This document shows, in pieces, positions 47,574 to 64,000 of a DNA stretch of 64,000 nucleotides. Where the stretch lies: positions 434,001-498,000 of the forward strand of contig NZ_CANMQT010000003.1 of the NCBI RefSeq assembly GCF_947500065.1, in the 5' to 3' direction. The number at the start of each line of letters is the position of its first letter. The first letter of the stretch is position 1. Position numbers and translations under genes: made by a program. The notes under the pieces were generated by a model. That model searched no databases and was not told where the DNA came from. It saw only the letters and a program-made list of their open reading frames with translations. Source of the DNA: an uncultured Aquimarina sp. (GTDB lineage Bacteria; Bacteroidota; Bacteroidia; Flavobacteriales; Flavobacteriaceae).

Positions 47574-47606
47574 AAAACGGGAAGCTATTGATAAGCTTCC
47601 CGTTTT
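47574..47606. terminator. terminator of the peptide operon, same stem as after the M16 gene
   Basis: A perfect 13-bp stem (47574-47586 and 47594-47606, core CGGGAAGCT / AGCTTCCCG) with a 7-nt loop and A/T runs on both sides. It ends the minus-strand peptide operon 24 bp after its last stop codon. The core is identical to the terminator at 44348-44381. Confidence 0.92.
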
Positions 47607-47629
47607 AAACTATTACAATAATTTAATTA

Positions 47630-47827
47630 CTAACAATTAATAATATCATTCCAGCTACAAGCCTGCCATTCATCGAATGATGCATGAGCACACCTTCCAT
47701 GACTATTTAAACAAGTCATAAACCCACAAGTTGGTAAACAAAGATCTTGTTCAAGCTTTCCTCCACTAATAGTTTTTTGCTCTGTTTTACTTAACGTTTT
47801 TCCTAAATTTGAAATGTTTTTTAACAT
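47630..47827 (-). CDS. GG-leader Cys-rich peptide precursor (bacteriocin-like), six Cys
   Basis: A 65-residue precursor. Residues 1-23 are a double-glycine leader (MLKNISNLGKTLSK, then EQKTISGG), the Bacteroidota version of the ComC/bacteriocin leader cut by C39-peptidase ABC transporters. The 42-residue core after GG contains six Cys (DLCLPTCGFMTC, HGRC, ACSWND and a C-terminal NC), which would allow three disulfides or other crosslinks. The leader is nearly identical to that of the peptide at 48545-48745. No C39 transporter or modification enzyme lies in the window, so export genes must be elsewhere. Activity could be antibacterial or signalling. Confidence 0.8.
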   Translation of the reverse strand: MLKNISNLGKTLSKTEQKTISGGKLEQDLCLPTCGFMTCLNSHGRCAHASFDEWQACSWNDIINC

Positions 47828-47851
47828 GATTTATATATTTAAAATTATTAT

Positions 47852-48487
47852 TTACTGACAATAAACTGTACAAGAAGCTCCTGAGAAAAGACCTCCTTCA
47901 TTGAAATTCATATAACCGGTAAGACCTTGAGCTTGACAGTTTAATAGATTCAAAGCATTCGAACACTCAACCTGTGGTGAATCGGTTAACAATTCTACGA
48001 TCATACCAGCTACCGGTAGAATCAAACAAGGCCAACAAAATTTCTGTGCAACATCAACTTGATTATTATTAGTACTTAATTTGATCCCTTTTAACGTATG
48101 CCCTAGACTGGTAATCACATCAAAAGTATATCCTCTACCGGATTTTGTAAGATTAACTATTTCAATAAATTCTCCCGTCTTAACATGTTCAAGTCTTTTT
48201 ATACCTCTATGTTCTGAAAACGTTATTTGATTCATGAATTCTTCTGAAGGAATCATATTATATTGGAATCTTCCTCCTTCATATTTTGCTGCCTCTCCTT
48301 TATCATTAACCAAAAAATGATAATCCTCATATGAAACACTATAATCTGAAGAATTGCGTTTTTCTAGCGATACATTTTCTAATGCTTGTGTTTCAATACT
48401 ATCGTCTTTAGAACAGCTAATAACAAATATTGATAGGCAGAATACTAAGATTGATTTTTGAAGTATATTGAGATTTAATTTTTTCAT
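47852..48487 (-). CDS. Cys-rich lipoprotein between two GG-leader peptides
   Basis: A 211-residue lipoprotein with signal peptide and lipobox VISC (Cys25), followed by SKDD. The middle (about 50-145) is polar and beta-rich (YSVSYEDYHFLVNDKGEAAKY, KTGEFIEIVNL). The last 60 residues have six Cys (KFCWPCLIL, VECSNALNLLNC, ASCTVYC), and this tail resembles a short secreted Cys-rich peptide in composition. I do not recognise the family. In the operon it sits 24 bp before the downstream peptide and 57 bp after the upstream one; it might be an immunity protein, a receptor, or a peptide presented on the cell surface. Confidence 0.7.
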   Translation of the reverse strand: MKKLNLNILQKSILVFCLSIFVISCSKDDSIETQALENVSLEKRNSSDYSVSYEDYHFLVNDKGEAAKYEGGRFQYNMIPSEEFMNQITFSEHRGIKRLEHVKTGEFIEIVNLTKSGRGYTFDVITSLGHTLKGIKLSTNNNQVDVAQKFCWPCLILPVAGMIVELLTDSPQVECSNALNLLNCQAQGLTGYMNFNEGGLFSGASCTVYCQ

Positions 48488-48544
48488 TTTATTAAGTATT
48501 TTTAATTAAGTTTTATTTTATTTTTTTCTGAAATTTAACGTGAA

Positions 48545-48745
48545 TTACTCTTCACAGCAAAATGAATGAATTTGTGAATTACAAGGTGTTAACCCGATTA
48601 CTAGACCACTACCGGGATCAACAACCGTTACATTGTAAAAACACATATGTTCATCTTCTGAAGGAGCATGTAATAACCCTCCTTTAATTGATTTCTGCTC
48701 GTTTTTATTTAGCCTCTTTCCTAAGTTTGAAATGTTTTTTAACAT
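48545..48745 (-). CDS. GG-leader Cys-containing peptide precursor (bacteriocin-like), four Cys
   Basis: A 66-residue precursor and the first gene of the three-gene operon. The leader (MLKNISNLGKRLNK, then EQKSIKGG) ends at residue 23 with the GG cleavage site. The 43-residue core starts LLHAPSEDEHMCFYNVTV and ends HSFCCEE, with four Cys including a vicinal pair. The leader is almost identical to that of the gene at 47630, and the DNA around both starts is also alike, while the cores share nothing obvious: a duplicated leader with diverging cores. Its promoter is probably the repeat-bearing region at 48856-48918. Confidence 0.8.
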   Translation of the reverse strand: MLKNISNLGKRLNKNEQKSIKGGLLHAPSEDEHMCFYNVTVVDPGSGLVIGLTPCNSQIHSFCCEE

Positions 48746-48918: not shown

Positions 48919-48954
48919 TTATTGTTAAAAAAGTATTAAACTAATAATCAAAGC

Positions 48955-48986
48955 AAAAAGCTCTTACATTTCTGTAAGAGCTTTTT
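48955..48986. terminator. terminator at the end of the RHS operon
   Basis: A perfect 14-bp stem AAAAAGCTCTTACA / TGTAAGAGCTTTTT (48955-48968 and 48973-48986) with a 4-nt loop. It ends the minus-strand RHS/immunity operon and separates it from promoter copy A. A related hairpin lies at the corresponding place of copy B (61777-61808). Confidence 0.9.
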
Positions 48987-49015
48987 ATTATTATTTGTTT
49001 TTATAATCAATGTGC

Positions 49016-49127: not shown

Positions 49128-49799
49128 TCAATTTGTATTTTTCTTACCCATATCTATAATTTCTTTTAAATCTTTTTTGCTAACTTCACTTAAAAATTTT
49201 GAATTACTTATAATTTCCTCAATATCAATAACATTTGAAAAATCTAAAAATTGACTATAATAATTAATCGTATTCAAATACCTGTAAAAATAAAATGGTT
49301 CTGTTTTTTCTTTATTCAAAGTCTTTGAAACTTTTTTAAAGTATTTTAAGTTTAAATCCCCAGCTAAAAAAAGGTTTATATTAGTTTGAAATTTAACCAA
49401 ATTATTTGAAGTTCTTTTACTTAATAATTTGTTTAAATTTAAATAATTAACATTAACTTTTTCTTTATAATAAAACTCATTCATAAAATCTAGAATACTT
49501 AATTTTAACAAATAACTTTTTCGCTTTAACAAATCATCTATTATATAATCATAGAATTTAACAGAGTAATAATCTATGTTAATTGCTAAATCAATTAGTT
49601 CCATTTTATGATCCATTGATATATTTTTTTTCATATTTACATTGATATAGTCAATGTAAATATGAAAATTTCTATCAGATTTAAAACATGAATAATTAGT
49701 GATAAAATAATTTCTAATCATTTCATCTTCAAGCAGCTTTATAATTTGATTAGCTTCTAACTCTTTTCCTTTACTTATTAGTTTTAAAATATCTTTCAT
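49128..49799 (-). CDS. putative immunity protein to the RHS toxin (helical, AT-rich)
   Basis: A 223-residue, all-helical-looking protein without signal peptide or membrane segments; Lys, Asn, Ile, Leu and Tyr dominate. It has no motif I recognise. It starts 7 bp after the stop of the RHS protein with a toxin-like tail, and its base composition is more AT-rich than the genes around it. Both are usual for immunity genes of polymorphic toxins. The helical repeats (KMELIDLAINIDYYSVKFYD, LNLNKLLSKRTSNNLVKF) could form a HEAT/ARM-like solenoid. The immunity role is inferred from position only. Confidence 0.6.
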   Translation of the reverse strand: MKDILKLISKGKELEANQIIKLLEDEMIRNYFITNYSCFKSDRNFHIYIDYINVNMKKNISMDHKMELIDLAINIDYYSVKFYDYIIDDLLKRKSYLLKLSILDFMNEFYYKEKVNVNYLNLNKLLSKRTSNNLVKFQTNINLFLAGDLNLKYFKKVSKTLNKEKTEPFYFYRYLNTINYYSQFLDFSNVIDIEEIISNSKFLSEVSKKDLKEIIDMGKKNTN

Positions 49800-49806
49800 A
49801 ATAAAA

Positions 49807-52800
49807 TTACCTTACATCTCCTCGACCCCTGTTTTTTCCTTTATTTCTTTGTCCTCTTCTCTTTTGTTCCTGTTCTATTCTCTTTTTAAGTTTTTTATCT
49901 CCACTTCTTATCGCTTCCTTCATTAAGGCTGCTAATTCCTCATCTGATAATGGAGACAATTCATCATCCCATTTTCCAGTTTTTCCTTTACCCATTTGAT
50001 GAATATAAGAATCAACCAAAGCAACATCATTAACAGTAAAACTTTGTATTACTGGTGGTGAATAAACTCCAGAAAAAGGCACTGATCTAGCGTCATATCT
50101 TGCAGTTGTTGATATTGGTCCTACAGTGGGCATATATCTTGGAGCTCTGCCATTTGGTAATACATGGTCAAGATACACAAAACCAGCTAAAGGTAATACT
50201 CCTATTCCAAATGCAGCAGCAGGTGCAGCGGCAGCGGTAGCTGCACCTGTTAAAGCAGGTGTTGAAATTGTTGGTAAAGTAACAGCCGAAGTTTCAGCCA
50301 AATTTGCAGTTAATGCAATTAATAATGCGGCTGAATTAGCTTGATTTAATTGGGTCAAATTTGAACTATTTCTATTAAGCGTAACCTCATCTAAACCTTG
50401 AATACCACTTGTATAATAATAAGCATAAGAACGTGCACCCCCATCATCAGGAATAAAGTTAGCTATTGGGTGAGGGTCTGCACAGTCAGTACATCCGCCA
50501 TCAGGGTCGACCTTACTGATTGGATTATTACCCATACCAAGATATGGACTATAGAACTCACCATAAGGATCTGTCGTTAACCACCTACCTATTCTACTAT
50601 CCCAAAGTCTTAATTCAAAAGCGTTTAAACCAGTTTCTGAGTCTTTCTCAGCAAATTCTCCTTGATACCCATATCGATAATCTCCTTCAATATTTTTATT
50701 GGGCATCGGCATCCCAAAAGGATAATAATCTGTTTTGCTAGTTAATGACAACGCATTGTCACCATCTTTCATCACCACAGCTCTTACATTCCCTAAATGA
50801 TCTGCAAGCTGATATACGTATTTACCATCAGAACGAGATCCGTTATCTCTCTTAAAAACACCTATCCTACCAGCACCATACACTGGATGTTCTTCTAGTT
50901 TCATCTGTGCGCGTCCTGGTCTGTAATAAATTGCCATTGGACTACCTGCTATATCTCTTACATAAATAGTCTGTATTAATTCACTGCCTATAAATGATTC
51001 TTTACGCACACGCTGTCCTCGATCATTATAATAAAAAGCAACTTTTTCCTTATTGGCTACCTGTAGATGTACATTATCTATCTCGGCACTCTGATATAAT
51101 TTATTGTATGCATTTAATATTCCAAAACCATTAGGGATCTCTCCATCATTACTAATATCTATGATAACATACACTTTAGCTCCTGTAGCCAGAAAATCAA
51201 AATTAATATGATCTACAATTCGATCGCAATAACTATGGGTATGATCCTGTGGGTTTATTACTATGGTTTCAATAATAGATCCATCTTCTTGCTTTAGTGT
51301 AATTGTGACACCTGCATTCATATCAATTACCTGATCAGATATGATACCATCATTAAAAACAGATCCCAATAATTGCTTTTGAAATAACAATACATCAAAT
51401 TCTAGCTTATGATGCGCATTTGCTACCGTTTTAAAGTCTGTTTTAATCGTATAGGTATTATTGGGTTGTACCCTATTATAAAAGTTAAACTGTAACCTAC
51501 CTTGATATGGGTCGCTGTTATCAAAATCTACGCAATATGGCGGTATATTGACTTCTTCATGAGAAATTGGTTCCCCGTTTATAATTTGTGGTAGTAACCC
51601 TGTAAAAACATCTTCCTGATCAGATTGGTTAGCTATAGAAACATGCCTCAATCCTTCAGATACCGTCCAATTACTATGTCTACCAGCTGTATTAAAATCT
51701 TCAAAAGCAAGTGTATGATACGTATTGGTATCTGTAGTAGTTAATTCACTAATTTTAGTAACCAATCCTGCAGCGTTATAGGCATACAGCACTTTATCTT
51801 GTTTATTGATTACCAATTGCCCTATACTATTATAGATATAATTACCTGACTCCTGATTTTTCAAATCGTTATATCGGTTTACATTGGTATTGTCATTTGT
51901 GTCCTCTACATGGTTTAATTGATTATTAATGCTACCGTAATGATATGTAAAATCATCCATCGCATTTGTACCATTGGCATCGGTAAAACCATTACGTTTT
52001 AATGTTTTTATATTACCATTAGCATCATAAGTTATATTACTAACTTTATAATCTTCGGCATTTTTGGTGTTCTCGTTTCTATAATTCGCATTAGTTAACC
52101 AGTTGTTTTTATTATAACTATATGAATAGGTACTAGGTTGTCCTACTTGGTTCTGCCACTGTACCGCTTGTATATTGCCATTAAACTGGTTTGGGCTAGA
52201 TGCATTTACTTGGGCAATAGGTGTTGGTGTATTTGTCCTTGTATAATCATTTCTATAATACTGAAGTGTCATACCAAAAACATCTGCAATAAAACCATTG
52301 GCACCATCCTGTCCTGGATCATTTTTCGTCTGTAATGAAGGGTGATTTATAGCCTTAAGTTGTCCGTTAAGATTATATACGTAATCTACACCTTGTAAAT
52401 TTTCAGCTAATTCTTTTCTAATTAATTGTCCTGTCTCATTATAAAAATACTTTGCCTGCTCTTCAAAATTTTCATTATCAATAGATGTAGCAACTCGTAT
52501 CAATTGTCCACCTACATTATACTCATAGTTGTGAATAAATCGTTCATCTTTGCTATGTCTTTGATAATCCACTTGTATTACTTGACCTGTAATAGCATCA
52601 TAGGTATAATCTGTTGTTTTCAAACAATCTAAGCCTGGTATATTTTGTATAATCCACTCTACTCTTCCGTATACATCATAACTGTACCAAGTTGTGGTTG
52701 TTTCTGGAGATTTTGTCTGGGTTTTTGATACATTACCTGATAAAAATGTTTGCTTGTATTCTTTTTCGGATAAGCCACATTTATTTAAATAATCAGCTAA

Positions 52801-55119
52801 AGATTTGTCCGGCATATCATACAAGGTAAAATGCTGCTCGAAACAATTTCTATCATCTAATCCATCCTGTACATTCACCAATGTCTGTATATCGATCCCA
52901 ATTGGTACTGGAGGTAATACTGGAGTTTCTGTAATAAAGACTGCGTTAATCGCATTATTATTGTAGTTAAAAGAAGCATCTACTGCTAGAGGTCCAGAAG
53001 AATTGCCTGCACTTGTATAAAAAACTGTTCCATTTTTTTTATAAGTCACTATTCCATCTTGTCTTTCTACCATAAAAGAATCTAATGGACTAAAGGTTCC
53101 AAAGTTTATAATCTGACTGCTTCCATCTCTAATAAAATCTCCATTTTCATAAACCTGAATTGCACTTACACCTCCTACGTTTTTTAAATTAATTCCATAG
53201 GTAATACTTTGATAACCTAAATCTAAAGCAGCATCTATTGGTGATAATCCTACTACTACATCATAATTACCTACTTGAACTTGTCCCATTAGAGGCTTGA
53301 ATGATACATTTCCGTTTTCATCAATGGTCTCTACAGAATGAAATCCTGCATTCCATCCATCTGGAGCCAACACTTTTTTGTAGGTTGCAGATAAACTTTG
53401 TTGACTACTTATCACCTGAATGTATTCCGAAAAAGCTAAGGTAATTGTAGATATTGTTGGAGGATCAGGAGTGAAAGGATCTACAGGAGTTTCTGGTGCT
53501 AAATAAAACTCTATGTCATCAGACTTGTATACACCACTTTCAATGGGTCTTCCTAATCGATCGTAATTAGTATATGAAAATTCATCATTCGCATCTTGCT
53601 TTATATTCTGAGAAAAACGTATTTGACCATCTTTTCTATAAATAAACTTAGCTTCACCTTCATCCGGACTTTTAGTCTCCAATAACTGCCCTAGTGAATT
53701 GTATGAAAATTCACTTTTAAGATTAGAACTTTTAGGCTGTGTAGATTTTGTTAATCGTCCAGCTTTATCATAATAATTCAATGCATAGTCATAATAGTTC
53801 TGGCAATGACTCACACCATATTCTCTGTTTTCTTGATCAAACAAACTAGGATTATCGTTCAAACCATAAGATATATGATAGGTTCCGCTCCATGGTGCTG
53901 GAAACGTATGTATAATACCATATCTTAGCTCTACTCTGTAAAACCCTTGGGCAGTAGTATACACTCCAGGATTAACCTGCATTACGATTTCTTCTGTAAT
54001 TAAATCATATACTCTATAATAAATACCTTCCGGTAGATTATCATATGAGATTTCAATACGTTCAAAACTATCAGCAAACTCCTCTTTTTTATCTTTTATG
54101 CTCTTTCTAGAATTGGCTTTTTTCGATTCATACTCCTGAATTCGCGCACCAATGCAATCATTAATGTCATCACCAGAACTTATAGTGCCATCTACATTAG
54201 AAAAGCAATCAGAAGTACCACTAGAACCTCCTGAGGTTGTTGTAGTCGTAGTTGTAGTCGTACTAATATTTGTATTTAATAATGCTATATTTTGACATCC
54301 TTGAGGCATATGGAAATCTACCCAACCTTGTTCTTTTATTATGATTCTATTGTTAGTTGTGTAGTTATTGACTCCTTCTTCATTTCCACTTCTTGCCGAG
54401 GCCAATACATTGCCATCACTATCCGTAAAAACGACATTTTCAATTCCATGTGCATCTCTACTTATGGTTTTTGTAGTAATGACATCCTCGTAATTAGGAT
54501 TATTAAAAGCACGTGATTTAGAGAGTTCTTGCCCTGCAGGCATGCTAAACGTATAGGTTTGAAGCCAATTACCCTCAATCTTATTACCTCCTAAAACTTT
54601 TTTTACAGTACCAGGATTAAGTTTACTATGAATAGTTCTACTAAACGGATAGCTCGTATTATCCTGATATTGATTTGTCGTATTGTTATTATAATACGCT
54701 CCCAATTTACTAGAAGTACTAACTGTTTTTGGGTTTTCTATAAAACTACCTTGGTCAAAATCCGATGTTTCATAATTTCCAGAATTTTCCTTCAAAAAAT
54801 TAATATCATATGTAAATAACCCCGAACTGTTTAAAGGTGCGGATAGTGTACTAAAAGATGGTCTGCCTTGATAATCATAGAGAACTTCACTACCCCAAAC
54901 TTTTCCAGATGACACATCCCAACTTTGGCTTTGAGTAGGTTTACCATAATCATTAAAAAATCCAACACTTTTATGTAAAGTCTGCCCAGAAATATCATAA
55001 CTAATACTACTAATCCAATTAGTGTTATCTGTGGGACTTGGTGGTGTTTCTTGTGCTAACAAACCTGTTACAGAAAATAAGCAACTACAAAAAAGAACGT
55101 AAATAAATTTAAATTTCAT
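49807..55119 (-). CDS. giant RHS-repeat protein with RHS core and C-terminal toxin-like tail
   Basis: A 1770-residue exported protein. The signal peptide ends in GLLAQ. A DUF6443-like N-terminal region (WISSISYDISGQTLHKSVGF) is followed by a poly-Thr/Ser/Gly linker near 285-300. The YD/RHS repeats include YYDKAGRLTKSTQPKSSN, FSYNSLGQLLETKSPDEG and YDVYGRVEWI, and the RHS core ends with DSRIGRWLTTDPYGEFYSPY and GMGNNPISKVDPDGG near 1540. The last about 228 residues are the variable tail: an Ala-rich hydrophobic stretch, then a Lys/Arg-rich helical end (GKGKTGKWDDELSPLSDEEL, KKLKKRIEQEQKRRGQRN). This resembles small polymorphic-toxin domains of the RHS type, perhaps Ntox34-like, but I cannot assign it. 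No secretion genes are nearby. Confidence 0.88.
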   Translation of the reverse strand: MKFKFIYVLFCSCLFSVTGLLAQETPPSPTDNTNWISSISYDISGQTLHKSVGFFNDYGKPTQSQSWDVSSGKVWGSEVLYDYQGRPSFSTLSAPLNSSGLFTYDINFLKENSGNYETSDFDQGSFIENPKTVSTSSKLGAYYNNNTTNQYQDNTSYPFSRTIHSKLNPGTVKKVLGGNKIEGNWLQTYTFSMPAGQELSKSRAFNNPNYEDVITTKTISRDAHGIENVVFTDSDGNVLASARSGNEEGVNNYTTNNRIIIKEQGWVDFHMPQGCQNIALLNTNISTTTTTTTTTSGGSSGTSDCFSNVDGTISSGDDINDCIGARIQEYESKKANSRKSIKDKKEEFADSFERIEISYDNLPEGIYYRVYDLITEEIVMQVNPGVYTTAQGFYRVELRYGIIHTFPAPWSGTYHISYGLNDNPSLFDQENREYGVSHCQNYYDYALNYYDKAGRLTKSTQPKSSNLKSEFSYNSLGQLLETKSPDEGEAKFIYRKDGQIRFSQNIKQDANDEFSYTNYDRLGRPIESGVYKSDDIEFYLAPETPVDPFTPDPPTISTITLAFSEYIQVISSQQSLSATYKKVLAPDGWNAGFHSVETIDENGNVSFKPLMGQVQVGNYDVVVGLSPIDAALDLGYQSITYGINLKNVGGVSAIQVYENGDFIRDGSSQIINFGTFSPLDSFMVERQDGIVTYKKNGTVFYTSAGNSSGPLAVDASFNYNNNAINAVFITETPVLPPVPIGIDIQTLVNVQDGLDDRNCFEQHFTLYDMPDKSLADYLNKCGLSEKEYKQTFLSGNVSKTQTKSPETTTTWYSYDVYGRVEWIIQNIPGLDCLKTTDYTYDAITGQVIQVDYQRHSKDERFIHNYEYNVGGQLIRVATSIDNENFEEQAKYFYNETGQLIRKELAENLQGVDYVYNLNGQLKAINHPSLQTKNDPGQDGANGFIADVFGMTLQYYRNDYTRTNTPTPIAQVNASSPNQFNGNIQAVQWQNQVGQPSTYSYSYNKNNWLTNANYRNENTKNAEDYKVSNITYDANGNIKTLKRNGFTDANGTNAMDDFTYHYGSINNQLNHVEDTNDNTNVNRYNDLKNQESGNYIYNSIGQLVINKQDKVLYAYNAAGLVTKISELTTTDTNTYHTLAFEDFNTAGRHSNWTVSEGLRHVSIANQSDQEDVFTGLLPQIINGEPISHEEVNIPPYCVDFDNSDPYQGRLQFNFYNRVQPNNTYTIKTDFKTVANAHHKLEFDVLLFQKQLLGSVFNDGIISDQVIDMNAGVTITLKQEDGSIIETIVINPQDHTHSYCDRIVDHINFDFLATGAKVYVIIDISNDGEIPNGFGILNAYNKLYQSAEIDNVHLQVANKEKVAFYYNDRGQRVRKESFIGSELIQTIYVRDIAGSPMAIYYRPGRAQMKLEEHPVYGAGRIGVFKRDNGSRSDGKYVYQLADHLGNVRAVVMKDGDNALSLTSKTDYYPFGMPMPNKNIEGDYRYGYQGEFAEKDSETGLNAFELRLWDSRIGRWLTTDPYGEFYSPYLGMGNNPISKVDPDGGCTDCADPHPIANFIPDDGGARSYAYYYTSGIQGLDEVTLNRNSSNLTQLNQANSAALLIALTANLAETSAVTLPTISTPALTGAATAAAAPAAAFGIGVLPLAGFVYLDHVLPNGRAPRYMPTVGPISTTARYDARSVPFSGVYSPPVIQSFTVNDVALVDSYIHQMGKGKTGKWDDELSPLSDEELAALMKEAIRSGDKKLKKRIEQEQKRRGQRNKGKNRGRGDVR

Positions 55120-55139: not shown

Positions 55140-58100
55140 TTATTTAGATATAGTTTTCACCTGTTTAACTTTGTTATCGTCGCAACAACTACAGTCATTT
55201 GAAGCGCCGTTTTTATAATTGTATTTATACTGATTGATTAACTTAAATCCTCCATCAGTTTCTGGTAAATCGGCTTCTACTTCTTTAAACAACCTACAGA
55301 GTCTACCTGCATTATCATAAACATATTTTGTTGCCATATTATTAGCATCTAAAACATAGGTTAACTCATCGGTATTTTGATCATATACATAGGTATTAAT
55401 ACTAGCATAGACAGGATGTATCCTGAAATCATCTATATTTATTTGAATTCCTTTATACCTATCAGAAAGTGTTAAATACAAAGTATTCTCAGAGCCATCC
55501 AAAAACTCATAATGATTAAATTGATACCATCTTCCAGCTTGTACGATTTCTCCATTAAACGCTATTGACTTTCCATTAATATTAAGCCTCATCATAGTTG
55601 CCGCTCTAAGAGAATTAGCCCAAACAGAAATCTTATAATTATCCTTAGCGTATTCACCAGATCTCATTCTGGTTTTAAAGCCTTTATCACCTGCTCCGAT
55701 TCTTAAAGAAAACTGTCCTGTATGTGCATCACTTTCATCTCTTAAGTTTGCTCCTTGAATATCTTGATCCAGATATTCGCCATCAATATTGTATTCTGCA
55801 CTAGAAGCATACAGTTCTGTATAACTTGCGTTACCACTAGCAACAACCTTAGTTTGATTTTCAGCCATTTTAGATGAGACATAATTACCATTAATGTCTT
55901 TATTTTCTATCGGAGAAGACCAATGTGTATACCTTGTAGTTTCTGATACATTATTCCATTTTTCATTTGTAGGAGTCCCTGTTGTCCAATCAAAATAGTT
56001 GTTGTTTTTATTAACATTCGTAACGTAACTACCATTAGCCACATTGATATCATCTTTCCAAACAAAAGATTTATGCTTACGCCATACATCATTTAGCTGT
56101 TCTTCATTTCCTTTATAATCTCTATAATTCCATGAGTTATTCCACGTTGTTATATTGGCGTTGAGTGTTTTCCATCCTCCTGATGCCCCTCCGCTATAAG
56201 ACCAAGATGTAATAGACATGGCTTCTTGAGTTAACATATTTTTATTTGATGGGTTATCTACCTTAGAACCCATTTCCGGATATTTGGCATAGGCTGGTAC
56301 TCTTTCACTATATATAGATGAACCATCCGCTTGAGTAGTTTTACTAGTTCTAAAACTACCTAACCAGGGATCAGGGTTTGAATATTCTGTTTCGAATTTG
56401 TTATTTCCACCAATTAACACAGTTTTCTTAAGCATATTATTATATTCTGTCCTTGAAGAAACACTTAATAGTTTTTTACTATTTAAAACAGCTGTACCAT
56501 TTGAATTAGTGGTAAATATGGTTTTCATAGAATTAAAGGACTCTTTAATATGACCTTTATCAGGTTCATTACCCAAATTGGTTCCATTGGTGAATTCATT
56601 AGAAACTTTATACATCAAATGATTCTTACTATTATATACCTCCATTGATTTAAGTTGTCCTAATATTGCTGTATTTACATGTATGTCTACAGTTTTAGCT
56701 TTTCCATTTGTAATGTCTTGTTCATTTACTTTTGCCCAAAATAATTTATCCTCCTGAGGAGACTGTGCCTCATTGGTTTCCATTGTTATTTCAGGATTAA
56801 AAATATTGAACACTGGTTTTAGAACATGATGCTGATATCTATTTTTTGTATAATAGGAACCGTCTTCTGCTGTAGATTTTACGGTTACATACTCGTACAT
56901 AACTCCAGGTGGTGTAAGTTCCGATCTATAAGGCACATATTTAAGTCCTTTAACAGGAGCAAATGAAGTAATTCCTGAAGATCTAGGCTGGTTATTATTA
57001 TTGATTTCATATGGATTTGAGTAATCGTATTGTGTTCTATAGCTTGTATTACCATCTGACACCTTTATTTCTTTTACTCTTAACCCCCCGCCTGTTTCAT
57101 CTTCTGGAACTTTACTAGCTAATAGATTATATATAATTGAATGAGCATTATCATTATTAGCTATATTTTCATCTACCCAAGCTAATTCATAACGATTTTT
57201 GTTTTGTCCTAGTGAATATTCAATATCATTTTTTACTATAGGAGTATTAAAAATATTATTTACACCTTCCCAACCATCTGCACAATTTCTTATTCTAGCC
57301 GTAACTTTTATTCTCATTTCATCGCTAGACAATTCTAGTATCTGAGCTTTCTGCTTTAAAATATCTATTGCTGCTCTTCTATAACCATTACCTGGATAGT
57401 TTCTCATTTTAGAATACCAAACATCTATAAAGAACTTTTCATTAGAATAGAAATAATCTCTAAAGTCAAAATCATTATTACCCAAAAGCGTATTATCTTT
57501 TTCTATTTTAATTTCAATTTCACCATTTTGATCACAGTATAAATTATTAGTATTATAGAATGTAAACTTTAAACCCTCTTTCCAATAGCGACGGGAAAAC
57601 GCTTCAGTCCAATAATCATCCTCTTCATAATCAAATTCCACAGTACTTCCTATTGGAGACGTTATTTCTTTAAGGTTCCATGCCTTAATTTTTGGTATTC
57701 CTGCTTCTTCTCCTTTTAAGAAGCCCCAATTGTCAATGACACTATTTTTGTAATCCACAAATTCAGGAACTGTATTATTACCATGTGCTCCATCTAAAGA
57801 TAAATTCTCCATTGTTTCTAAGTAATACTCAAACTTATAAGGAGGCATTATTTCACTATTGCCTTTCCCATTCATTCTTATCTCATTTAATGTTAGTTTA
57901 CCATAAGGGTGACTTACATTTGTTAAACCAGCAGGAAGCCCTTTTGAAGATGGTGAATTGGGTGCCAAATCATAATTATATGAGAAGTCAATTACATTTA
58001 ATGCGTTTTCTGAAATAAAGGTATTTGACAGATCATTAACATCAAATACAAGTGATTCATTATGAATACGGTAACTATAACTACTTCCATATGCTTCAGC

Positions 58101-60431
58101 AAAATATGGTGATTCCCATTGTGGGGAATGCCAACTATCTCTTGTATAGTTTGACAAACCACTCCCTAGAGATCCAGAACCATTTTTGACTAAATAATTA
58201 GCGTCTTCGGTTTTTAAAACGATTATTTTATCAAGTTTAAGAGAATATTCTCGTGCATAATTTACAGACCTTTCTCTAACATGAATATTTGAAGTATGAT
58301 TCATACCAGAATTTTCCCCAGTAGTACTTAAATACCCTGAAGAAGTAACATTACTATTAAACCAAAAGCCTAAATTTTTTCCAACAGCATCATAACGTAT
58401 ATCTTTAACAAAAATAGCTGTGTGTTCTTTTGACTTTATTTTATCTAGATAATACAATTGTTTTCTACCAAATTGGTAATGCCCTTTATCTTTTGTTTCA
58501 ACTTCGCCTTTTAAATTTGTGTAATAATCCATAACACCATCTTCATATGGTGATCTCCAGACAAATCCATCAGACCATTTACCATATTCAAATTCAATCC
58601 AAAACCCATAATCCTCTTCATCTACTCTGTTATTATTATTAAAATCAATATAGTCTGGACCCGTAACAGCTGTTAATAACCAGTGTGTTGCAAAAGGAGT
58701 ATATTGCCTGTTCTCTTTAACATTGGCAGCATCACTGGTCTCAATTAAATTTCGTTGTATTCTTTCAAAATGATAAACAGGTAATGAATAATGATAGGTT
58801 TTACCATCTGTTGAAGTTATTTTATATGCACCTATTCCATTTGGAGAAAAATGAATATCATTTTCTCTATCTGTATTATTTAAATTTGAGGGGATTATCA
58901 AACCTCTAACATTAGTTGCATAATTACTAGTTATTTGGTTATTAGTAAATGTTTCAATGAAATTTGGAGACTTTGCTCTACCTGATACATTATCATCTGT
59001 ATAAGAATTACTTAAATTTAAGCCACCTTGAGTCACATGATCTGAAAGATTATTTCCTGAGCCTAATATTGTACTTGGCTCCACTAATTCTTTACTAGAA
59101 AAGTGACCATCAAAATAAAAATTTAATGTGTTGACACTATTATGTGATTGTCCAAAATGACGTTGAGAAGCATCAGAAACATTCCCATGATGCCAAAACG
59201 CATGAATATCTTGTCCATTTGCATTTTGTGTCTTCACTCCCTTAGAAAAAATGGATATATTATCTAATATTCTAGGTGTAATTTTACCGCTAATTCCTTG
59301 AGCGCTTACTCCATAATTATCATATCCTGCGAAAGTAAAATTTGGTTTTTCGATTAATTTTGAATAATCTGCCAAAAACGTTTCTTCAGCCTGAGGAATT
59401 TCTGTGGAATACGCATCATAACCAAATTGTCTATTTTGATAATCATTTAAACTTCCTTGTTCATCAGCTATTATATCAATATTAGCAAGATTGTTATAAT
59501 CCCAACCATATAACACCCCCCATTCTCTATTCTCTTGACCCTTTCTTAAATGAATATCAACCTTCTTCTTTGTATACGCAACACCTAAAACACCAACACC
59601 TAACACTGCACTAGCTCCAAATGAATCTGATTGTGTATCAATGCTATAATCTCCTTGAGAAAAGGAATCTGAAGATTGGCCATAACTTCCACCATAACCA
59701 GCGTAACTTCCACCAATAGTATAACCGTTGTCATTAAACGATGCCCCAACACTCCATGCAGCTCCTGTATCCGTTTTTCCTCCTACATTTATGTTGTACG
59801 AAGTGTCACCTGTATGTGTGTTATAACTAGCGCCTAACCCTACGGAAGTACTTTTCGTTATATTCTGAGAATACCCTCCATTAATACCATAACCTGTTTT
59901 AACCTGATCACCTCTTCCTCTGGAATCTCTTACATATGCTTTATCAAAAAATCTATCCCACATTGTTACGGTTAATCCTTTTCCTTCACCCCAACTAAAC
60001 TCAGTCCCAGAAGAAACTATACCATCAAAACCACCATAACTTACTCCAATAGAATGATATTCTTGTTCTGTATGATAAGATGTAAAGTTAATTCCTACAC
60101 CTGATTTCCAATCATCTGGAATACCTTGAACACTTCTGTTAATTGCTCCTGGTGTTAAATACCAACCTAAACCAACCCATGATGCATCAAGGTCAGTAGT
60201 AACTCCTGAATGATAAGAAAGTGAAACAGGATAACCACCAATAGATAATACAGGTATAGAATATGACATATCACCAGATAATAGATTTACTACTCCATTA
60301 ACATCTATGGGTTCAAAACCTCTAGCATCCGGAGATGTTATTCCTTGAGCATATCCAGTTATACTATAAATGAAAAAAATCATTACTATAACTGTCAATA
60401 ATACCTTTTTAAACTTCTGTAATATTCCCAT
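55140..60431 (-). CDS. giant RHS-associated shell protein without toxin tail
   Basis: An exported protein of about 1763 residues. I chose the ATG at 60431, 4 bp after the preceding lipoprotein stop, because it gives a standard signal peptide (MGILQKFKKVLLTVIVMIF ending at YAQG); a longer frame starts at 60464 inside the lipoprotein gene. It opens with SPDARGFEPIDVNGVVNLLSG and SYSIPVLSIGGYPVSLSYHSG, the usual start of Bacteroidota RHS shell proteins. A Gly/Ser/Tyr-rich strand repeat lies at about 200-330. YD-like motifs occur only near the end (TKYVYDNAGRLCRLFKE), and there is no RHS core. The tail ends with a CSCC cluster. It is followed 20 bp later by the RHS protein that has the core and tail, so the two probably form one split cage. 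Confidence 0.85.
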   Translation of the reverse strand: MGILQKFKKVLLTVIVMIFFIYSITGYAQGITSPDARGFEPIDVNGVVNLLSGDMSYSIPVLSIGGYPVSLSYHSGVTTDLDASWVGLGWYLTPGAINRSVQGIPDDWKSGVGINFTSYHTEQEYHSIGVSYGGFDGIVSSGTEFSWGEGKGLTVTMWDRFFDKAYVRDSRGRGDQVKTGYGINGGYSQNITKSTSVGLGASYNTHTGDTSYNINVGGKTDTGAAWSVGASFNDNGYTIGGSYAGYGGSYGQSSDSFSQGDYSIDTQSDSFGASAVLGVGVLGVAYTKKKVDIHLRKGQENREWGVLYGWDYNNLANIDIIADEQGSLNDYQNRQFGYDAYSTEIPQAEETFLADYSKLIEKPNFTFAGYDNYGVSAQGISGKITPRILDNISIFSKGVKTQNANGQDIHAFWHHGNVSDASQRHFGQSHNSVNTLNFYFDGHFSSKELVEPSTILGSGNNLSDHVTQGGLNLSNSYTDDNVSGRAKSPNFIETFTNNQITSNYATNVRGLIIPSNLNNTDRENDIHFSPNGIGAYKITSTDGKTYHYSLPVYHFERIQRNLIETSDAANVKENRQYTPFATHWLLTAVTGPDYIDFNNNNRVDEEDYGFWIEFEYGKWSDGFVWRSPYEDGVMDYYTNLKGEVETKDKGHYQFGRKQLYYLDKIKSKEHTAIFVKDIRYDAVGKNLGFWFNSNVTSSGYLSTTGENSGMNHTSNIHVRERSVNYAREYSLKLDKIIVLKTEDANYLVKNGSGSLGSGLSNYTRDSWHSPQWESPYFAEAYGSSYSYRIHNESLVFDVNDLSNTFISENALNVIDFSYNYDLAPNSPSSKGLPAGLTNVSHPYGKLTLNEIRMNGKGNSEIMPPYKFEYYLETMENLSLDGAHGNNTVPEFVDYKNSVIDNWGFLKGEEAGIPKIKAWNLKEITSPIGSTVEFDYEEDDYWTEAFSRRYWKEGLKFTFYNTNNLYCDQNGEIEIKIEKDNTLLGNNDFDFRDYFYSNEKFFIDVWYSKMRNYPGNGYRRAAIDILKQKAQILELSSDEMRIKVTARIRNCADGWEGVNNIFNTPIVKNDIEYSLGQNKNRYELAWVDENIANNDNAHSIIYNLLASKVPEDETGGGLRVKEIKVSDGNTSYRTQYDYSNPYEINNNNQPRSSGITSFAPVKGLKYVPYRSELTPPGVMYEYVTVKSTAEDGSYYTKNRYQHHVLKPVFNIFNPEITMETNEAQSPQEDKLFWAKVNEQDITNGKAKTVDIHVNTAILGQLKSMEVYNSKNHLMYKVSNEFTNGTNLGNEPDKGHIKESFNSMKTIFTTNSNGTAVLNSKKLLSVSSRTEYNNMLKKTVLIGGNNKFETEYSNPDPWLGSFRTSKTTQADGSSIYSERVPAYAKYPEMGSKVDNPSNKNMLTQEAMSITSWSYSGGASGGWKTLNANITTWNNSWNYRDYKGNEEQLNDVWRKHKSFVWKDDINVANGSYVTNVNKNNNYFDWTTGTPTNEKWNNVSETTRYTHWSSPIENKDINGNYVSSKMAENQTKVVASGNASYTELYASSAEYNIDGEYLDQDIQGANLRDESDAHTGQFSLRIGAGDKGFKTRMRSGEYAKDNYKISVWANSLRAATMMRLNINGKSIAFNGEIVQAGRWYQFNHYEFLDGSENTLYLTLSDRYKGIQINIDDFRIHPVYASINTYVYDQNTDELTYVLDANNMATKYVYDNAGRLCRLFKEVEADLPETDGGFKLINQYKYNYKNGASNDCSCCDDNKVKQVKTISK

Positions 60432-60435
60432 TAAC

Positions 60436-61047
60436 CTAATTTTTAAATGATAATTGTGGTTCATTTTTTATAATGTTAGTGTCAACTTTAAACTTGACTT
60501 CTCCTGTGTACAACCCTAAATCTTCTATCGTAAAACTCAAAGTTTCTTCTTTTAATTTATTATCTTCTTTTGGATAGATAAATAGTATACTTGTACTCCT
60601 ACTCATGCCATACAGCCTTGGGTATACGAAATCTACCAGCGCTATTGTATCTTTACTTTTCGTATATAAATGAACTTTTTCATTCATCCCAAATGCTAGC
60701 TGGTTTACCATAGCTCCAAACTCGTTTCTATCTCCAGCCTTTTCATTAAGTAATTCTTGGTTATTTTTACTCATGCTCAAAATAAAATAGAGGTGTTTAT
60801 TATATTTCTCTCTTAATGTTTTGACTTTAGCATCTGTAATAAGATTTCCTATTTCTTGCTCTACTAAAAGATCTGTTGGTTTATAGATTAACTGAAAATC
60901 ATACCCGTTAACCGTCTTATTTTGAGTAAACCCATTTTCTTCAACCATTATATACTCTAGTAGCTCTTTTTCAGTAGTGAAGGTTCCACTTGTACAACCA
61001 TATAAAAACACTCCCAGAAATAATAGAATTCCTAATTTCATATACAT
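60436..61047 (-). CDS. small lipoprotein at the head of the RHS operon
   Basis: A lipoprotein of about 203 residues with lipobox LYGC, Cys18 from the start chosen here. The frame is open to 61074, but that start overlaps the OmpH-like gene by 14 bp; the ATG at 61047 gives a normal signal peptide and has AAGG a few bases upstream. The mature part has TTEKELLEYIMVEENGFTQN, NGYDFQLIYKPTDLLVEQEI and a C-terminal strand-rich section. I do not recognise the family. It lies between the OmpH-like and RHS genes, so it may help the RHS proteins reach or stay on the outer membrane. Confidence 0.75.
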   Translation of the reverse strand: MYMKLGILLFLGVFLYGCTSGTFTTEKELLEYIMVEENGFTQNKTVNGYDFQLIYKPTDLLVEQEIGNLITDAKVKTLREKYNKHLYFILSMSKNNQELLNEKAGDRNEFGAMVNQLAFGMNEKVHLYTKSKDTIALVDFVYPRLYGMSRSTSILFIYPKEDNKLKEETLSFTIEDLGLYTGEVKFKVDTNIIKNEPQLSFKN

Positions 61048-61060
61048 GATGAGTACCTTT

Positions 61061-61594
61061 TTATTTACCATCAAACTCCGTATTTAAACCCTCCAATACT
61101 TCTGGAGTTAAATCCGCAGCTTCAGAGGCATACATAACATTTCCTGAGCCACTCGCCCCAAAAATGATCTTGTATCCATTTTTCTTTCCGTATTCTTTTA
61201 CATAGTCATTAATATCATTAATCACTGTTTGCGTAGATTTTTTATCCTCTTCCTGGATTTGTTTTTGAATAGCTTGTTGGTAATTATTAATTTGTTGTTG
61301 TTTGTTTCCTAACAATTGCTGTTTAAGCTCTAGTTCTTTTTTAGATAACTGAGAACGTTCTTTTTCATACGTTTTAATTTCGTTTTGCCAGTCGGTCATC
61401 AAACTATCTACATTAGCATTAAGCGTTTTTGCTTTTTCTTCAAAAGTTGCACGCACTATTTTGGTTCTTTTATATCCGTCAAGTAACTTATTGACATCTA
61501 CATACACCTGTTCTGAAGATGATTGAAAGTGAAAAAATGAGAAAATTCCGAAAGCTAATGCTAAAACAGAAATGGGTAATGACAACTTATTCAT
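61061..61594 (-). CDS. OmpH/Skp-like periplasmic coiled-coil chaperone
   Basis: A 177-residue protein. An N-terminal hydrophobic segment (LPISVLALAFGIFSFF) works as signal peptide or anchor, then VYVDVNKLLDGYKRTKIVRA, the typical OmpH start. A long coiled coil follows (about 50-130: EKERSQLSKKELELKQQL, NYQQAIQKQIQEEDK). The C-terminal KEYGKKNGYKIIFGASGSGNVMYASEAADLT is the conserved Skp end that packs as a trimer base. Skp/OmpH proteins keep outer-membrane or exported proteins unfolded. As first gene of the RHS operon it may be a dedicated chaperone for the giant RHS proteins. Confidence 0.88.
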   Translation of the reverse strand: MNKLSLPISVLALAFGIFSFFHFQSSSEQVYVDVNKLLDGYKRTKIVRATFEEKAKTLNANVDSLMTDWQNEIKTYEKERSQLSKKELELKQQLLGNKQQQINNYQQAIQKQIQEEDKKSTQTVINDINDYVKEYGKKNGYKIIFGASGSGNVMYASEAADLTPEVLEGLNTEFDGK

Positions 61595-61886: not shown

Positions 61887-64000
61887 TTATCTTTTTTTAA
61901 GAAAGAATACTAGAAAACTGATTATCAGCACTAAAAGAAGAGATAAAAGAATTCCATACAAGAGCATGTTTGAAGGAAACAACTCAGTCTCTGAATCACC
62001 AATCAGCACAAATGTTGCCCAATAATGTGGAGATGCGTCTGATAAAGATGCAGATTTTAGATAGTTTATTTTGGCATTATGCAGTGCTTTGGATTTGGTC
62101 TGACCTTCTTCTAAATTATTATAGAAACTCTCCATGATCTGAGCGGTAGATTTATCATTGGCATTCCATAACGATGAGATTACTGTATTCGCACCCGCAT
62201 AGAAAAAACCTCTTGCCAGGCTCATTACTCCTTCACCCTCTGCTATTTCTCCCAAAGATGTATTACAAGCACTTAGCACTACCAATTCTGCTTGATTTCT
62301 TGAAGTATACAGCTCATGATATTCCAAATTAGTATCATGAAAAGCTATCTGAAGGTTATCAGAAAAATTGGCATGTGTAGCCAAATGAATTATTTTGTAA
62401 TCTTCTGTATTAGACAAAAAATTCTGTTTAGAAGCTTCTTTTTCTCTATAATTATCTCCTAATACATGCTTAGTGATACCTTCTATCTCATTACTACTAT
62501 TGCTAATATCTTCAAGATCATCGTGCGTAAAATTTACAGGAGCAAAACTTACTAAATCCTTCGAAGATGCTCGCTTCACAGTAGCATTATGCTCCAAAAA
62601 AGACATAGAATACGCATAACTTACTTCGTTGTCTTCAATGAGGTATCTATTTGTATTTTTATCCACTATTAAGGATTCGAAGGGAATGTATTGTAATGTC
62701 CCATCAGGAATAATCACTAGATGTTTTTGATCCAAAGACATGGTAATTTTGTCCTTTGGAATCAATAAAGTATATAGCTCTGAAGCTATTTCCTGAAATC
62801 TTAATCGGTCTTCTTCAGTCTCAAAAGGCTTGGATAATTGACTTCTATAGTTTCTAATCAGTTTTTTCATCTCACTTAACGCTCCTATTCTAATGATTTC
62901 TGTTTGGGTTTTAGAAGTAAAAACTGCATACAAAACACTATAAGAATCATCATCTTCGTCCTGATTACAAACATAAGATATAATAACACTCTCGTCATCT
63001 AAAGTTTCTTGAACTTTCTTTAAACCAACAATACTTGTAGTTTCTTTTTCTTTGTAATATTCTGGAAACAAAATCTTCAAAGAATCTTCTTGTTCTTGAT
63101 ATTGTTGTTTCAATTCAAATCGTTTATTCTCTAAAAATCTTAAGCTATCTTGGTATTTTTGATTTTCAATACGTTTTTCCAGATCCAAGATCTGTCTTTT
63201 AAGTTCATTTTCCTTATCTAAAACGTCATTAGGTAATTGTACTTTTTCTGTATTCTCAAGAATATCTTCCGTTAAGAGTAGTGCTTTCTTTTTTTCTGAA
63301 AAATAGAATCCTTTTTCTCGATCATTAAGAATTTCACAAACCAACATTCCTTTTAAATATATTTCTGAAGCTTCTTCTCTCCAATATAATCTTGATCCTT
63401 CTTCTGCACTATCTTTTAGAAGAATATTAACCAATTCATCAGCAGACAACAAATTAGCAAGCGCAAGTTCAATATGATTCCTATTATTTTCTTTTTGATA
63501 TAATTCTATAAAAATAGTTGCTTTCTGAATCAATGCAGACAAGACATTGTCCTTATTACTTGAAGTTTCTAAGTCCTTCAAACTGGGTAAAGTAGTAATA
63601 TTCGAATCAATATGAATACTTGCTGTAAAAGTTTTTTGAATATTATCTAATGCCTTTAGATACTTTTTCTTTACCAAGTAATAATTGCTTAAGTTATGAT
63701 AGATATCAGCTTTTTCCTCTTCATCAGTACAATATCTTAAACCCGTATTCAAAAAATAGAGTGCGCTATCTTTTTGAATCTCATTTTTTGATTCAATATA
63801 TAAATTTCCCAAATTGGTATACAGGGTGTTTACTGCAGAAGAATCTTCAACTTCTATTGCTTCTTTTAGATTTTTGTAATAATATTCTTTTGCTTTACTA
63901 AAATTAAATCTTGCATAGGAATTATAATAATGTGCATAGCCATTATTCATACTCATATAATTTCGTAACCCATAGAATGAATTAGATGGAGCTTCTTCAA
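61887..64000 (-). CDS. TPR-CHAT protease with C-terminal membrane anchor (partial, N-terminus beyond window)
   Basis: The reading frame stays open to the right edge (PSNSFYGLRNYMSMNNGYA is upstream of the first visible Met at 63956), so the N-terminus is missing. Counting from that Met, TPR repeats fill about 1-130 (VNTLYTNLGNLYIESKNE, ADIYHNLSNYYLVKKKYLKA), and a coiled coil lies at about 240-300. The CHAT caspase-like domain (about 320-650) has the catalytic His in HLATHANFSDN near 525 and Cys in VVLSACNTSLG near 562. A last helix (MLLYGILLSLLLVLIISFLV, then a short basic end) anchors it in the inner membrane with the protease presumably on the periplasmic side. CHAT proteases act in defence, signalling and toxin activation. 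It is upstream of the RHS operon, same strand, its own terminator between. Confidence 0.9.
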   Translation of the reverse strand, partial: EEAPSNSFYGLRNYMSMNNGYAHYYNSYARFNFSKAKEYYYKNLKEAIEVEDSSAVNTLYTNLGNLYIESKNEIQKDSALYFLNTGLRYCTDEEEKADIYHNLSNYYLVKKKYLKALDNIQKTFTASIHIDSNITTLPSLKDLETSSNKDNVLSALIQKATIFIELYQKENNRNHIELALANLLSADELVNILLKDSAEEGSRLYWREEASEIYLKGMLVCEILNDREKGFYFSEKKKALLLTEDILENTEKVQLPNDVLDKENELKRQILDLEKRIENQKYQDSLRFLENKRFELKQQYQEQEDSLKILFPEYYKEKETTSIVGLKKVQETLDDESVIISYVCNQDEDDDSYSVLYAVFTSKTQTEIIRIGALSEMKKLIRNYRSQLSKPFETEEDRLRFQEIASELYTLLIPKDKITMSLDQKHLVIIPDGTLQYIPFESLIVDKNTNRYLIEDNEVSYAYSMSFLEHNATVKRASSKDLVSFAPVNFTHDDLEDISNSSNEIEGITKHVLGDNYREKEASKQNFLSNTEDYKIIHLATHANFSDNLQIAFHDTNLEYHELYTSRNQAELVVLSACNTSLGEIAEGEGVMSLARGFFYAGANTVISSLWNANDKSTAQIMESFYNNLEEGQTKSKALHNAKINYLKSASLSDASPHYWATFVLIGDSETELFPSNMLLYGILLSLLLVLIISFLVFFLKKR

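What the first reader, a model, noticed from the sequence alone, without database searches (positions are those of the whole stretch)
47574..48745. Three-gene operon: two GG-leader Cys-rich peptides around a Cys-rich lipoprotein
Two precursors have almost identical 23-residue leaders ending in GG but unrelated cores with four and six Cys. Between them a lipoprotein ends in a six-Cys tail of similar composition. Duplicated leader with diverging cores is what arms-race peptides or signalling peptides show. No exporter or maturation enzyme is nearby, so a shared export machine elsewhere must serve them. The lipoprotein could be immunity, receptor or a surface-tethered peptide.
Basis: partly seen in the sequence, partly recalled or inferred. 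Interest (0 to 1): 0.75.

Follow-up and report, generated by a model that had tools for sequence, protein, structure and literature searches.

The report
Secreted cysteine-peptide cassette in Aquimarina
Two small genes for secreted, probably disulfide-bonded peptides and one surface lipoprotein form one cassette of a very large peptide repertoire in a marine bacterium; its contents are swapped whole between species in a locus that also carries toxin genes, which points to weapons rather than housekeeping.

Summary
In detail: pepA (48545-48745), a lipoprotein (47852-48487) and pepB (47630-47827) lie on the minus strand between two terminator hairpins; leaders 18/23 identical, cores unrelated (4 and 6 Cys). 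The wider picture is richer. The genome (an Aquimarina) holds 57 such leaders (E < 0.01), scattered, in 45 core clusters; 52 of 57 cores have an even Cys number. Two C39 ABC exporters lie elsewhere, as does a VKOR-thioredoxin fusion whose C39-like domain lacks the catalytic Cys; some relatives encode that fusion beside the exporter. The cassette lies behind (13 kb from) an ECF-sigma/CHAT-protease gene set. In relatives the same slot holds other GG peptides, other lipoproteins or RHS toxins. The lipoprotein keeps about 40 N-terminal residues (87/90 nt identical to a relative) while its body is replaced, and fits the Bacteroidota surface-export signal. The pepA core is under purifying selection in the one pair available, so variation seems to come by cassette replacement. 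The lipoprotein is probably not pepA's immunity protein. Best reading: disulfide-bonded peptides exported in trans plus a surface-displayed polymorphic lipoprotein, serving antagonism. Activity is untested. New variant of a known kind.

The parts
48545..48745 (-). pepA: GG-leader precursor, 23-aa leader + 43-aa core with 4 Cys
   Evidence: leader profile E 3.7e-10; 88% identical relative in G436
47852..48487 (-). polymorphic surface lipoprotein: signal + LES (C-SKDDS) + linker conserved in the family to about residue 40, swapped body, six-Cys tail
47630..47827 (-). pepB: GG-leader precursor, 23-aa leader + 42-aa core with 6 Cys
   Evidence: leader profile E 4.6e-10
47574..47606 (-). terminator-like hairpin closing the three-gene unit
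48954..48987 (-). terminator-like hairpin between the unit and the gene upstream (reads on both strands)
49128..49799 (-). putative immunity protein of the RHS protein (no Pfam or NCBIfam match at E <= 1)
   Evidence: position directly after the RHS gene; inference
49807..55119 (-). RHS/YD-repeat protein with RHS core domain and a C-terminal tip that differs from that of G436; cargo in the same slot
55140..60464 (-). large secreted-looking protein before the RHS gene, cargo in the same slot (not scanned for domains; counterpart in G436)
   Evidence: label inferred
60436..61074 (-). lipoprotein-like ORF; similar genes beside an OmpH-like gene in G436 and, in a paralogous locus, in G456 (seen by eye)
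61061..61594 (-). OmpH-like protein (PF03938)
61887..63956 (-). TPR-CHAT protein, CHAT domain (PF12770) with His and Cys in place; the ORF continues past the window to 879 aa; upstream of it lie a small lipoprotein gene and a divergent ECF-sigma and TPR pair

Best explanation
The three genes are one cassette of a genome-wide system. Shown by sequence: pepA and pepB carry a GG leader shared with about 55 other genes in this genome; the cores are Cys-rich, mostly with an even Cys number; two C39 ABC exporters and a VKOR-thioredoxin fusion with a C39-like domain that lacks the catalytic Cys are encoded elsewhere. Inferred: the precursors are recognised by their leader, oxidised to disulfide-bonded peptides (the dead C39-like domain docking the leader on the VKOR enzyme), cut after GG and exported in trans. 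The lipoprotein is moved to the cell surface by its LES signal and displays a variable body with a Cys-rich tail. The cassette sits in a variable cargo slot behind an ECF sigma factor, its TPR partner, a small lipoprotein and a TPR-CHAT protease; relatives fill the slot with other GG peptides, other lipoproteins or RHS toxins. The shared slot and the whole-gene replacement argue that the products are antagonistic effectors against neighbouring cells (bacteria or eukaryotic microbes), possibly deployed under ECF/CHAT control.
For: 57 leaders at E < 0.01 in the genome; all 57 cores contain Cys, 52 an even and 5 an odd number (binomial p 3e-11; Cys content was not used to pick the leaders); 45 core clusters. 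Exporters C4:30062 and C2:753875 have C39 + ABC domains and the motif Cys (DCGPTC, VECGAA). In the genus 44 of 48 genomes with C39 have a leader at E < 1e-4, 0 of 4 without C39 do (read; Fisher p 2.6e-4). Fusion with VKOR, thioredoxin and C39 domains (Pfam on the G441 copy); of the 10 C39 matches of 527-545 aa that one search prints (its list is cut), 7 lie within 2 kb of a roughly 735-aa exporter, 3 of them read directly; beside GG peptides in L243, L247 and L250. Cargo slot: 14 of 24 scored sigma-CHAT loci have a same-strand leader within 2.5 kb behind CHAT (0.013 expected each). Lipoprotein gene: 87/90 nt identical to G436, then near-random identity. LES fit. RHS genes in the same slot in the window, G436 and G412.
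Against: No activity, expression or mass spectrometry data. No immunity gene was identified for pepA or pepB. Only 8 of the 57 peptides lie within 3 kb of a CHAT gene, plus the window's pair 13 kb behind one, so the CHAT link covers a minority. In the window the RHS cargo and a terminator lie between CHAT and the cassette, so co-regulation is not shown. 10 of 24 scored loci have no leader; the slot also holds ordinary-looking secreted proteins. The loci are related by descent, so the p-values overstate. The own-genome fusion is not next to an exporter, and the exporter stretches L217, L218, L248 and L249 show no fusion beside them. Two of the relatives' lipoproteins (C-S-T-D-S, C-S-T-D-N) do not fit the LES rule as well. 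LytTR regulators near five peptide loci would also fit signalling.
Confidence: 0.55

Rival explanations
1. The peptides are signals: exported disulfide peptides sensed by the producer or kin, with ECF/TPR or LytTR systems as readers; the lipoprotein is a receptor or co-receptor.
For: LytTR response regulators lie in 5 of the 32 own-genome peptide stretches searched (L187, L191, L192, L200, L213; three of the five helped to train the search). ECF sigma genes flank the CHAT loci. pepA core is conserved between two species.
Against: 45 core clusters in one genome are more than I know of for any signalling set (recalled); no background rate of LytTR genes was measured; cargo slot shared with RHS toxins.
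Confidence: 0.2
2. Ordinary bacteriocin unit: pepA and/or pepB kill, the lipoprotein is the cognate immunity protein.
For: Operon layout peptide-lipoprotein-peptide; lipoproteins do serve as bacteriocin immunity in some systems (recalled). The ISENHE/ISENDE-type peptide and the Gly-zipper lipoprotein travel together in G436 and G459.
Against: G436 has pepA at 88% identity, but its only two matches to the window lipoprotein at E <= 0.01 cover residues 1-44. The RKEDPT peptide has a lipoprotein of this kind beside it in G432 but not in G414, and an LRPNADG peptide has none beside it in G404.
Confidence: 0.1
3. The peptides are toxins aimed at eukaryotes (algae, protists, sponge-associated hosts), which would fit a repertoire without obvious partner genes and the knottin-like spacing of some cores.
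For: By eye I saw no constant partner gene beside the single peptides (immunity genes were not searched for systematically). Cores at C3:93051 and C22:12264 have a CxxDSDCCSGSC stretch like cystine-knot toxins (the resemblance is recalled).
Against: No target data; RHS toxins in the same slot are usually antibacterial (recalled); no structure of a peptide was obtained.
Confidence: 0.25
4. Housekeeping or metal-binding small proteins whose GG stretch is not a cleavage site.
For: pepA core under purifying selection; no convincing Pfam match either way.
Against: Leader retained at 22-25 residues across 45 core clusters, mostly ending GG, GA or GS; leaders found with C39 exporters; presence patchy: 46 of 397 sampled family genomes at E <= 1e-3.
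Confidence: 0.05

Closest known systems
Bacteroidetocins (GG-leader class II-like bacteriocins of Bacteroidetes; PMC6671954, passages read)
   Same: GG leader with a C39 ABC exporter, small core with four Cys, a thiol oxidoreductase proposed to make the disulfides
   Different: Those sit in four-gene clusters (TM protein, peptide, thiol oxidoreductase, exporter) with a 15-aa leader; here leaders are 22-25 aa, exporter and oxidase would act in trans, and one genome has 57 leaders in 45 core clusters
NCBIfam NF047798 leader_Chryseo, 'bacteriocin-like protein'
   Same: Same kind of GG leader, partial match at the leader end (13.3 and 14.0 bits)
   Different: Below its cut-off of 23.5 bits; the own genome has 22 weak hits at E <= 10 and none over the cut-off
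SitA polymorphic lipoprotein toxins of Myxococcus (PMC5562445 passages, PMC8546572 abstract and outline)
   Same: Lipoprotein with conserved N-terminal part and exchanged C-terminal part
   Different: Conserved part here is only the signal, LES and a short linker; tails are Cys-rich or Gly-zipper without a recognised toxin domain; no immunity gene or TraAB shown
Polymorphic RHS toxins
   Same: Same slot, constant carrier with variable tip; RHS genes are in this locus
   Different: The peptide/lipoprotein cargo has no RHS carrier; the constant part is a secretion tag
Prochlorosin-type one-machine, many-cores RiPP sets (recalled)
   Same: One leader type and few enzymes serving dozens of scattered, unrelated cores
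   Different: Disulfides rather than thioethers are inferred; a lanthionine synthetase was not searched for

Membership tests
C39/GG-leader exported peptides | Leader of 15-30 residues ending GG (or GA/GS) with Leu at -12, acidic at -8, hydrophobic at -4 | tested here: met
   pepA and pepB meet all three; the position rules are recalled; Gln instead of Leu/Met at -7 is a departure, and -8 varies in other leaders of the genome
C39/GG-leader exported peptides | C39 ABC exporter encoded in the genome with catalytic Cys | tested here: met
C39/GG-leader exported peptides | Cleavage after GG and secretion | not testable with these tools
   needs mass spectrometry
Bacteroidetocins | Local cluster with exporter, TM protein and thiol oxidoreductase | tested here: not met
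   no C39 hit on contig C3; neighbours listed
Bacteroidetocins | Core sequence similarity | not tested
   no bacteroidetocin sequence was fetched or compared
NF047798 leader_Chryseo | Score over curated cut-off 23.5 bits | tested here: not met
   13.3 and 14.0 bits
Surface lipoproteins of Bacteroidota | LES C-X-K-(D/E)2-X after the lipobox (rule of Capnocytophaga canimorsus; F. johnsoniae consensus is SDDFE) | tested here: met
   C-S-K-D-D-S in the sequence; rule from PMC5080379 passages; localisation itself untested
SitA lipoprotein toxins | Conserved lipoprotein N-terminus with exchanged C-terminus | tested here: met
SitA lipoprotein toxins | Nuclease toxin domain at the C-terminus | tested here: not met
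   no Pfam, NCBIfam or PDB sequence match to a toxin
SitA lipoprotein toxins | Cognate immunity gene; TraAB exchange | not tested
   no immunity candidate identified; TraAB not searched
Class IIa bacteriocins | Pediocin-type core (Pfam Bacteriocin_II) | tested here: not met
   no such match at E <= 1

The most novel reading that the evidence does not exclude
A polymorphic effector platform in which the constant parts are a regulator-protease chassis (ECF sigma, TPR partner, small lipoprotein, TPR-CHAT protease) and short secretion tags (a GG leader, or a lipoprotein signal with LES), while the payload behind the tag is replaced wholesale at DNA level; the payload peptides are folded by a leader-guided disulfide machine, a VKOR-thioredoxin fusion that uses a dead C39 domain as leader receptor. 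My searches of the held library listed no paper that, by title and abstract, describes this combination.
Probability: 0.35. Interest if true: 0.8.

Novelty: new variant of a known kind. Interest (0 to 1): 0.62.

Why it matters
If right, one bacterial genome carries a library of some 57 disulfide-rich secreted peptides behind a single leader type, a repertoire on the scale of a venom, with a candidate enzyme for leader-guided disulfide formation. That would give a source of stable peptide scaffolds, a testable role for CHAT proteases outside defence, and a case where diversity arises by swapping cassettes behind a constant secretion tag.

Tried and rejected
Lipoprotein as pepA immunity: rejected as the leading idea. 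Local leader duplication followed by fast core evolution: rejected; the leader is genome-wide and pepA evolves under purifying selection in the one comparable pair. Lipoprotein tail as a GG core moved onto a lipoprotein: tblastn of three tails against the 251 loci fetched by then gave the lipoproteins themselves and three weak Gly-rich hits (L066, L233, L069); L066 proved to be another lipoprotein, the other two were not followed. Known domains: Pfam and NCBIfam gave only sub-threshold hits for the three proteins, e.g. borfam54_2 at 21.2 bits against a cut-off of 30, read as a lipoprotein-signal effect. PDB sequence search of the lipoprotein and of one relative gave nothing below E 0.3, of the G441 fusion nothing at E <= 0.001. 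Structure of the lipoprotein without its signal, from a single sequence: mean pLDDT 44, beta strands in the middle and a low-confidence tail; too poor to use; no fold search was made and the second structure job was not used. Bacteroidota promoter pattern over the window: 55 matches against 51 by chance. Plasmid records (lipoprotein) and phage records (pepA): no match at E 1e-5. The lipoprotein searches gave many weak hits (E 1e-5 to 1e-2) that mostly cover the signal; they were not used as relatives. ORF labels by regular expression gave false peptide labels (e.g. an OmpH fragment, a sigma-like ORF, a GTPase fragment), which I ignored. In one search one fusion row (L247) was cut by the script's choice of start. 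From the 25 small ORFs I used 24 leaders (one near-copy left out).

Full report
Observation. Gaps are 57 and 24 nt. A strong hairpin with a T-rich tail closes the unit at 47574-47606, and another at 48954-48987 separates it from the gene upstream, so the three genes most likely form a transcription unit of their own. The leaders agree in 18 of 23 residues; the cores (43 aa, 4 Cys; 42 aa, 6 Cys) are unrelated. The lipoprotein has a clear lipobox and six Cys in its last 61 residues.

The leader is a genome-wide feature. The window lies in a 6.57 Mb genome, contig C3, of the same genus as Aquimarina sp. 2201CG14-23 (G436: its contig NZ_JARYGY010000003.1 and G436:C22 have the same length). I collected small ORFs with such leaders from this genome (25 found, 24 used), aligned the leaders and searched the genome with the profile: 60 matches at E <= 1, 57 at E < 0.01, the 24 training rows included. 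I read all 60 and counted the 57: every core has Cys; 52 have an even number, 5 an odd one (p = 3e-11 against equal odds); median core length is 39. At BLAST E 1e-4 they fall into 45 clusters, 39 of them single. In the genus 48 of 52 sampled genomes have a match at E <= 1, from 0 to 65 per genome, and 25 of 52 have 20 or more. In the family 46 of 397 sampled genomes, in 37 of 237 genera, have a match at E <= 1e-3 (it scored at most 21 candidates per genome, so its counts are floors).

Export. The genome encodes two C39 ABC exporters, at C4:30062 (734 aa, with an HlyD partner and two GG peptides of another leader type beside it) and at C2:753875 (746 aa, with an HlyD-type gene before it and a second ABC-like protein after it). 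Across 52 genomes scored both ways, a leader at E < 1e-4 occurs in 44 of 48 genomes with a C39 hit over the cut-off and in 0 of 4 without (read; Fisher p 2.6e-4). Three of the four C39-less genomes are incomplete (55, 81 and 89%), and relatedness is not corrected for.

Disulfide formation. A third C39 match in the genome (C1:571455, 21.2 bits, just below the cut-off of 22) is a 557-aa ORF. Its counterpart in G441 has Pfam matches over cut-off to C39, VKOR and thioredoxin. The own copy has no Cys in its first 140 residues, where true C39 peptidases have the catalytic Cys; the alignment of seven copies (one cut short) shows the WCxxC and NPxCxxC motifs of the VKOR and thioredoxin parts in the rows that reach them. 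Of the ten C39 matches of 527-545 aa printed (the list is cut), seven lie within 2 kb of a roughly 735-aa exporter; three of these were fetched and read (L245, L246, L251). Copies also lie beside GG peptides (L243, L247, L250). Against this: the own-genome copy is on another contig than either exporter, and the exporter stretches L217, L218, L248 and L249 hold no fusion. I infer that the C39-like part docks the leader and the rest oxidises the core. Two full-text searches for VKOR with C39 listed no paper.

The locus. The window's cassette lies at the far end of a run of minus-strand genes that starts with a TPR-CHAT protein (61887-63956 and beyond, 879 aa, His and Cys of the dyad present), with a small lipoprotein gene and a divergent ECF sigma and TPR pair upstream. 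Close sigma orthologues (E < 1e-80) exist in 14 of 66 genus genomes. Behind CHAT I found: GG peptides in G459, G414, G432, G423, G424, G451; RHS genes in G412 and in G436, there with GG peptides further on as in the window; a long ORF with the G412 RHS start in G451; lipoproteins and other proteins without a leader in G397, G425, G398, G431; G455 is cut by its contig end. Taking the 26 best sigma matches by rank (orthologues and paralogues) and setting aside two with under 2.5 kb of sequence behind CHAT, 14 of 24 have a same-strand leader (E <= 0.01 in a small search) within 2.5 kb, where 0.013 per locus is expected from the densest genome. The window's own locus, one of the two set aside, has none in that distance, which would make it 14 of 25. 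Some of these loci are related by descent. In the own genome 8 of the 57 peptides lie within 3 kb of a CHAT gene in the stretches read, two of them convergent with it, and the window's pair lies 13 kb behind one; three of the other leaders had less than 3 kb of sequence on one side.

The lipoprotein is modular. Against G436 its gene is 87 of 90 nt identical from the start codon, 24 of 30 in the next block, 14 of 30 in the next and then 8-15 of 30; the 60 nt upstream match only 24 of 60 without gaps. The orthologous pepA pair is 83% identical (34 differences in 198 nt). A like N-terminus carries a second body in G432 and G436 (tail GCNWRYYLC...) and a third in G436 and G459 (Gly-zipper with Cys). 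In the family sample one homologue reaches over the whole window protein, in G343 (27%, E 1e-18), and one resembles its tail, in G107 (E 0.004), where an in-frame stop separates lipobox and tail. G432 repeats the peptide-lipoprotein-peptide order with all three payloads replaced. After the lipobox Cys comes S-K-D-D-S, which fits C-X-K-(D/E)2-X, shown to send lipoproteins to the surface in Capnocytophaga canimorsus (PMC5080379, passages read); the Gly-zipper lipoproteins (C-S-T-D-S/N) fit less well.

Selection. pepA and its G436 counterpart differ by 8 synonymous and 3 nonsynonymous codons in the leader and by 12 and 5 in the core. This is purifying selection in the one pair available. Diversity therefore seems to come from replacing genes or gene bodies.

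Immunity. The window lipoprotein body has no match at E <= 0.01 in G436, which keeps pepA at 88%. The RKEDPT-type peptide occurs with a lipoprotein of this kind in G432 and without one in G414; an LRPNADG-type peptide has none beside it in G404. So the lipoprotein is unlikely to be the cognate immunity protein of these peptides, though the ISENHE/ISENDE peptide and the Gly-zipper lipoprotein do travel together (G436, G459).

Mechanism, with status. GG leader, Cys-rich and mostly even-numbered cores, exporters, fusion enzyme, swapped lipoprotein and shared cargo slot: shown by sequence. Cleavage, disulfides, export in trans, surface display: inferred from named families (C39, VKOR, LES). Antagonism: inferred from the shared slot with RHS toxins, the repertoire size and cassette turnover. 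CHAT control of this particular cassette: speculative.

Known and new. The nearest described system is the bacteroidetocins (PMC6671954, passages read), which share the GG leader, C39 exporter and thiol oxidoreductase but have them clustered; RiPP mining in Bacteroidales also reports GG leaders with C39 exporters (PMC10352776, passages). The leader type is recognised by NCBI as 'bacteriocin-like' in a related model that these genes match only weakly. SitA toxins show that lipoproteins with a constant N-terminus and exchanged C-terminus can be weapons (PMC5562445 passages, PMC8546572 abstract). A paper on Aquimarina antimicrobials has no occurrence of 'bacteriocin' or 'leader' in its main text (PMC9323603). 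Searches listed no account of this repertoire that I could recognise by title or abstract; the held library lacks most subscription journals. I file it as a new variant of a known kind.

Noticed in passing
window 49807-55119 and L084 73-5115: The RHS protein is closely similar in the two Aquimarina species up to the RHS core and then has different C-terminal tips, each followed by a different small gene, the usual sign of toxin-immunity exchange (seen by eye).
   Followed up: partly
L187 4171-4908, L191 777-1502, L192 4809-5558, L200 1690-2403, L213 5525-6298: LytTR response regulators lie near GG-peptide genes in five of 32 own-genome stretches, as in Gram-positive peptide signalling; no background count was made.
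   Followed up: partly
G000:C3:93051, C22:12264, C1:1145386: Three scattered peptides form one core cluster; two have CIDDSDCCSGSC, the third a variant, a pattern that looks like a cystine knot.
   Followed up: no
G000:C12:65615-66262, C2:382699, C2:383064, C1:1118465, C3:392545: A cluster of seven six-Cys cores shares a CxxGxC...C-x-aromatic second half; some stand in tandem.
   Followed up: no
L218 3386-4473: Two GG peptides with a different leader type stand beside the exporter together with a DUF6734 protein.
   Followed up: no
L183 5173-5620 (L077): In G107 a relative of the window lipoprotein looks like a pseudogene: lipobox start, an in-frame stop, then the Cys-rich tail.
   Followed up: partly
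L066 883-1674: A genome of another genus (G141) has a lipoprotein with a Gly-zipper tail and a weak N-terminal match to the window lipoprotein.
   Followed up: partly
L170 4177-4857: A lipoprotein with a Cys and Gly-zipper tail lies on the sigma side of a sigma/CHAT locus in G447.
   Followed up: partly
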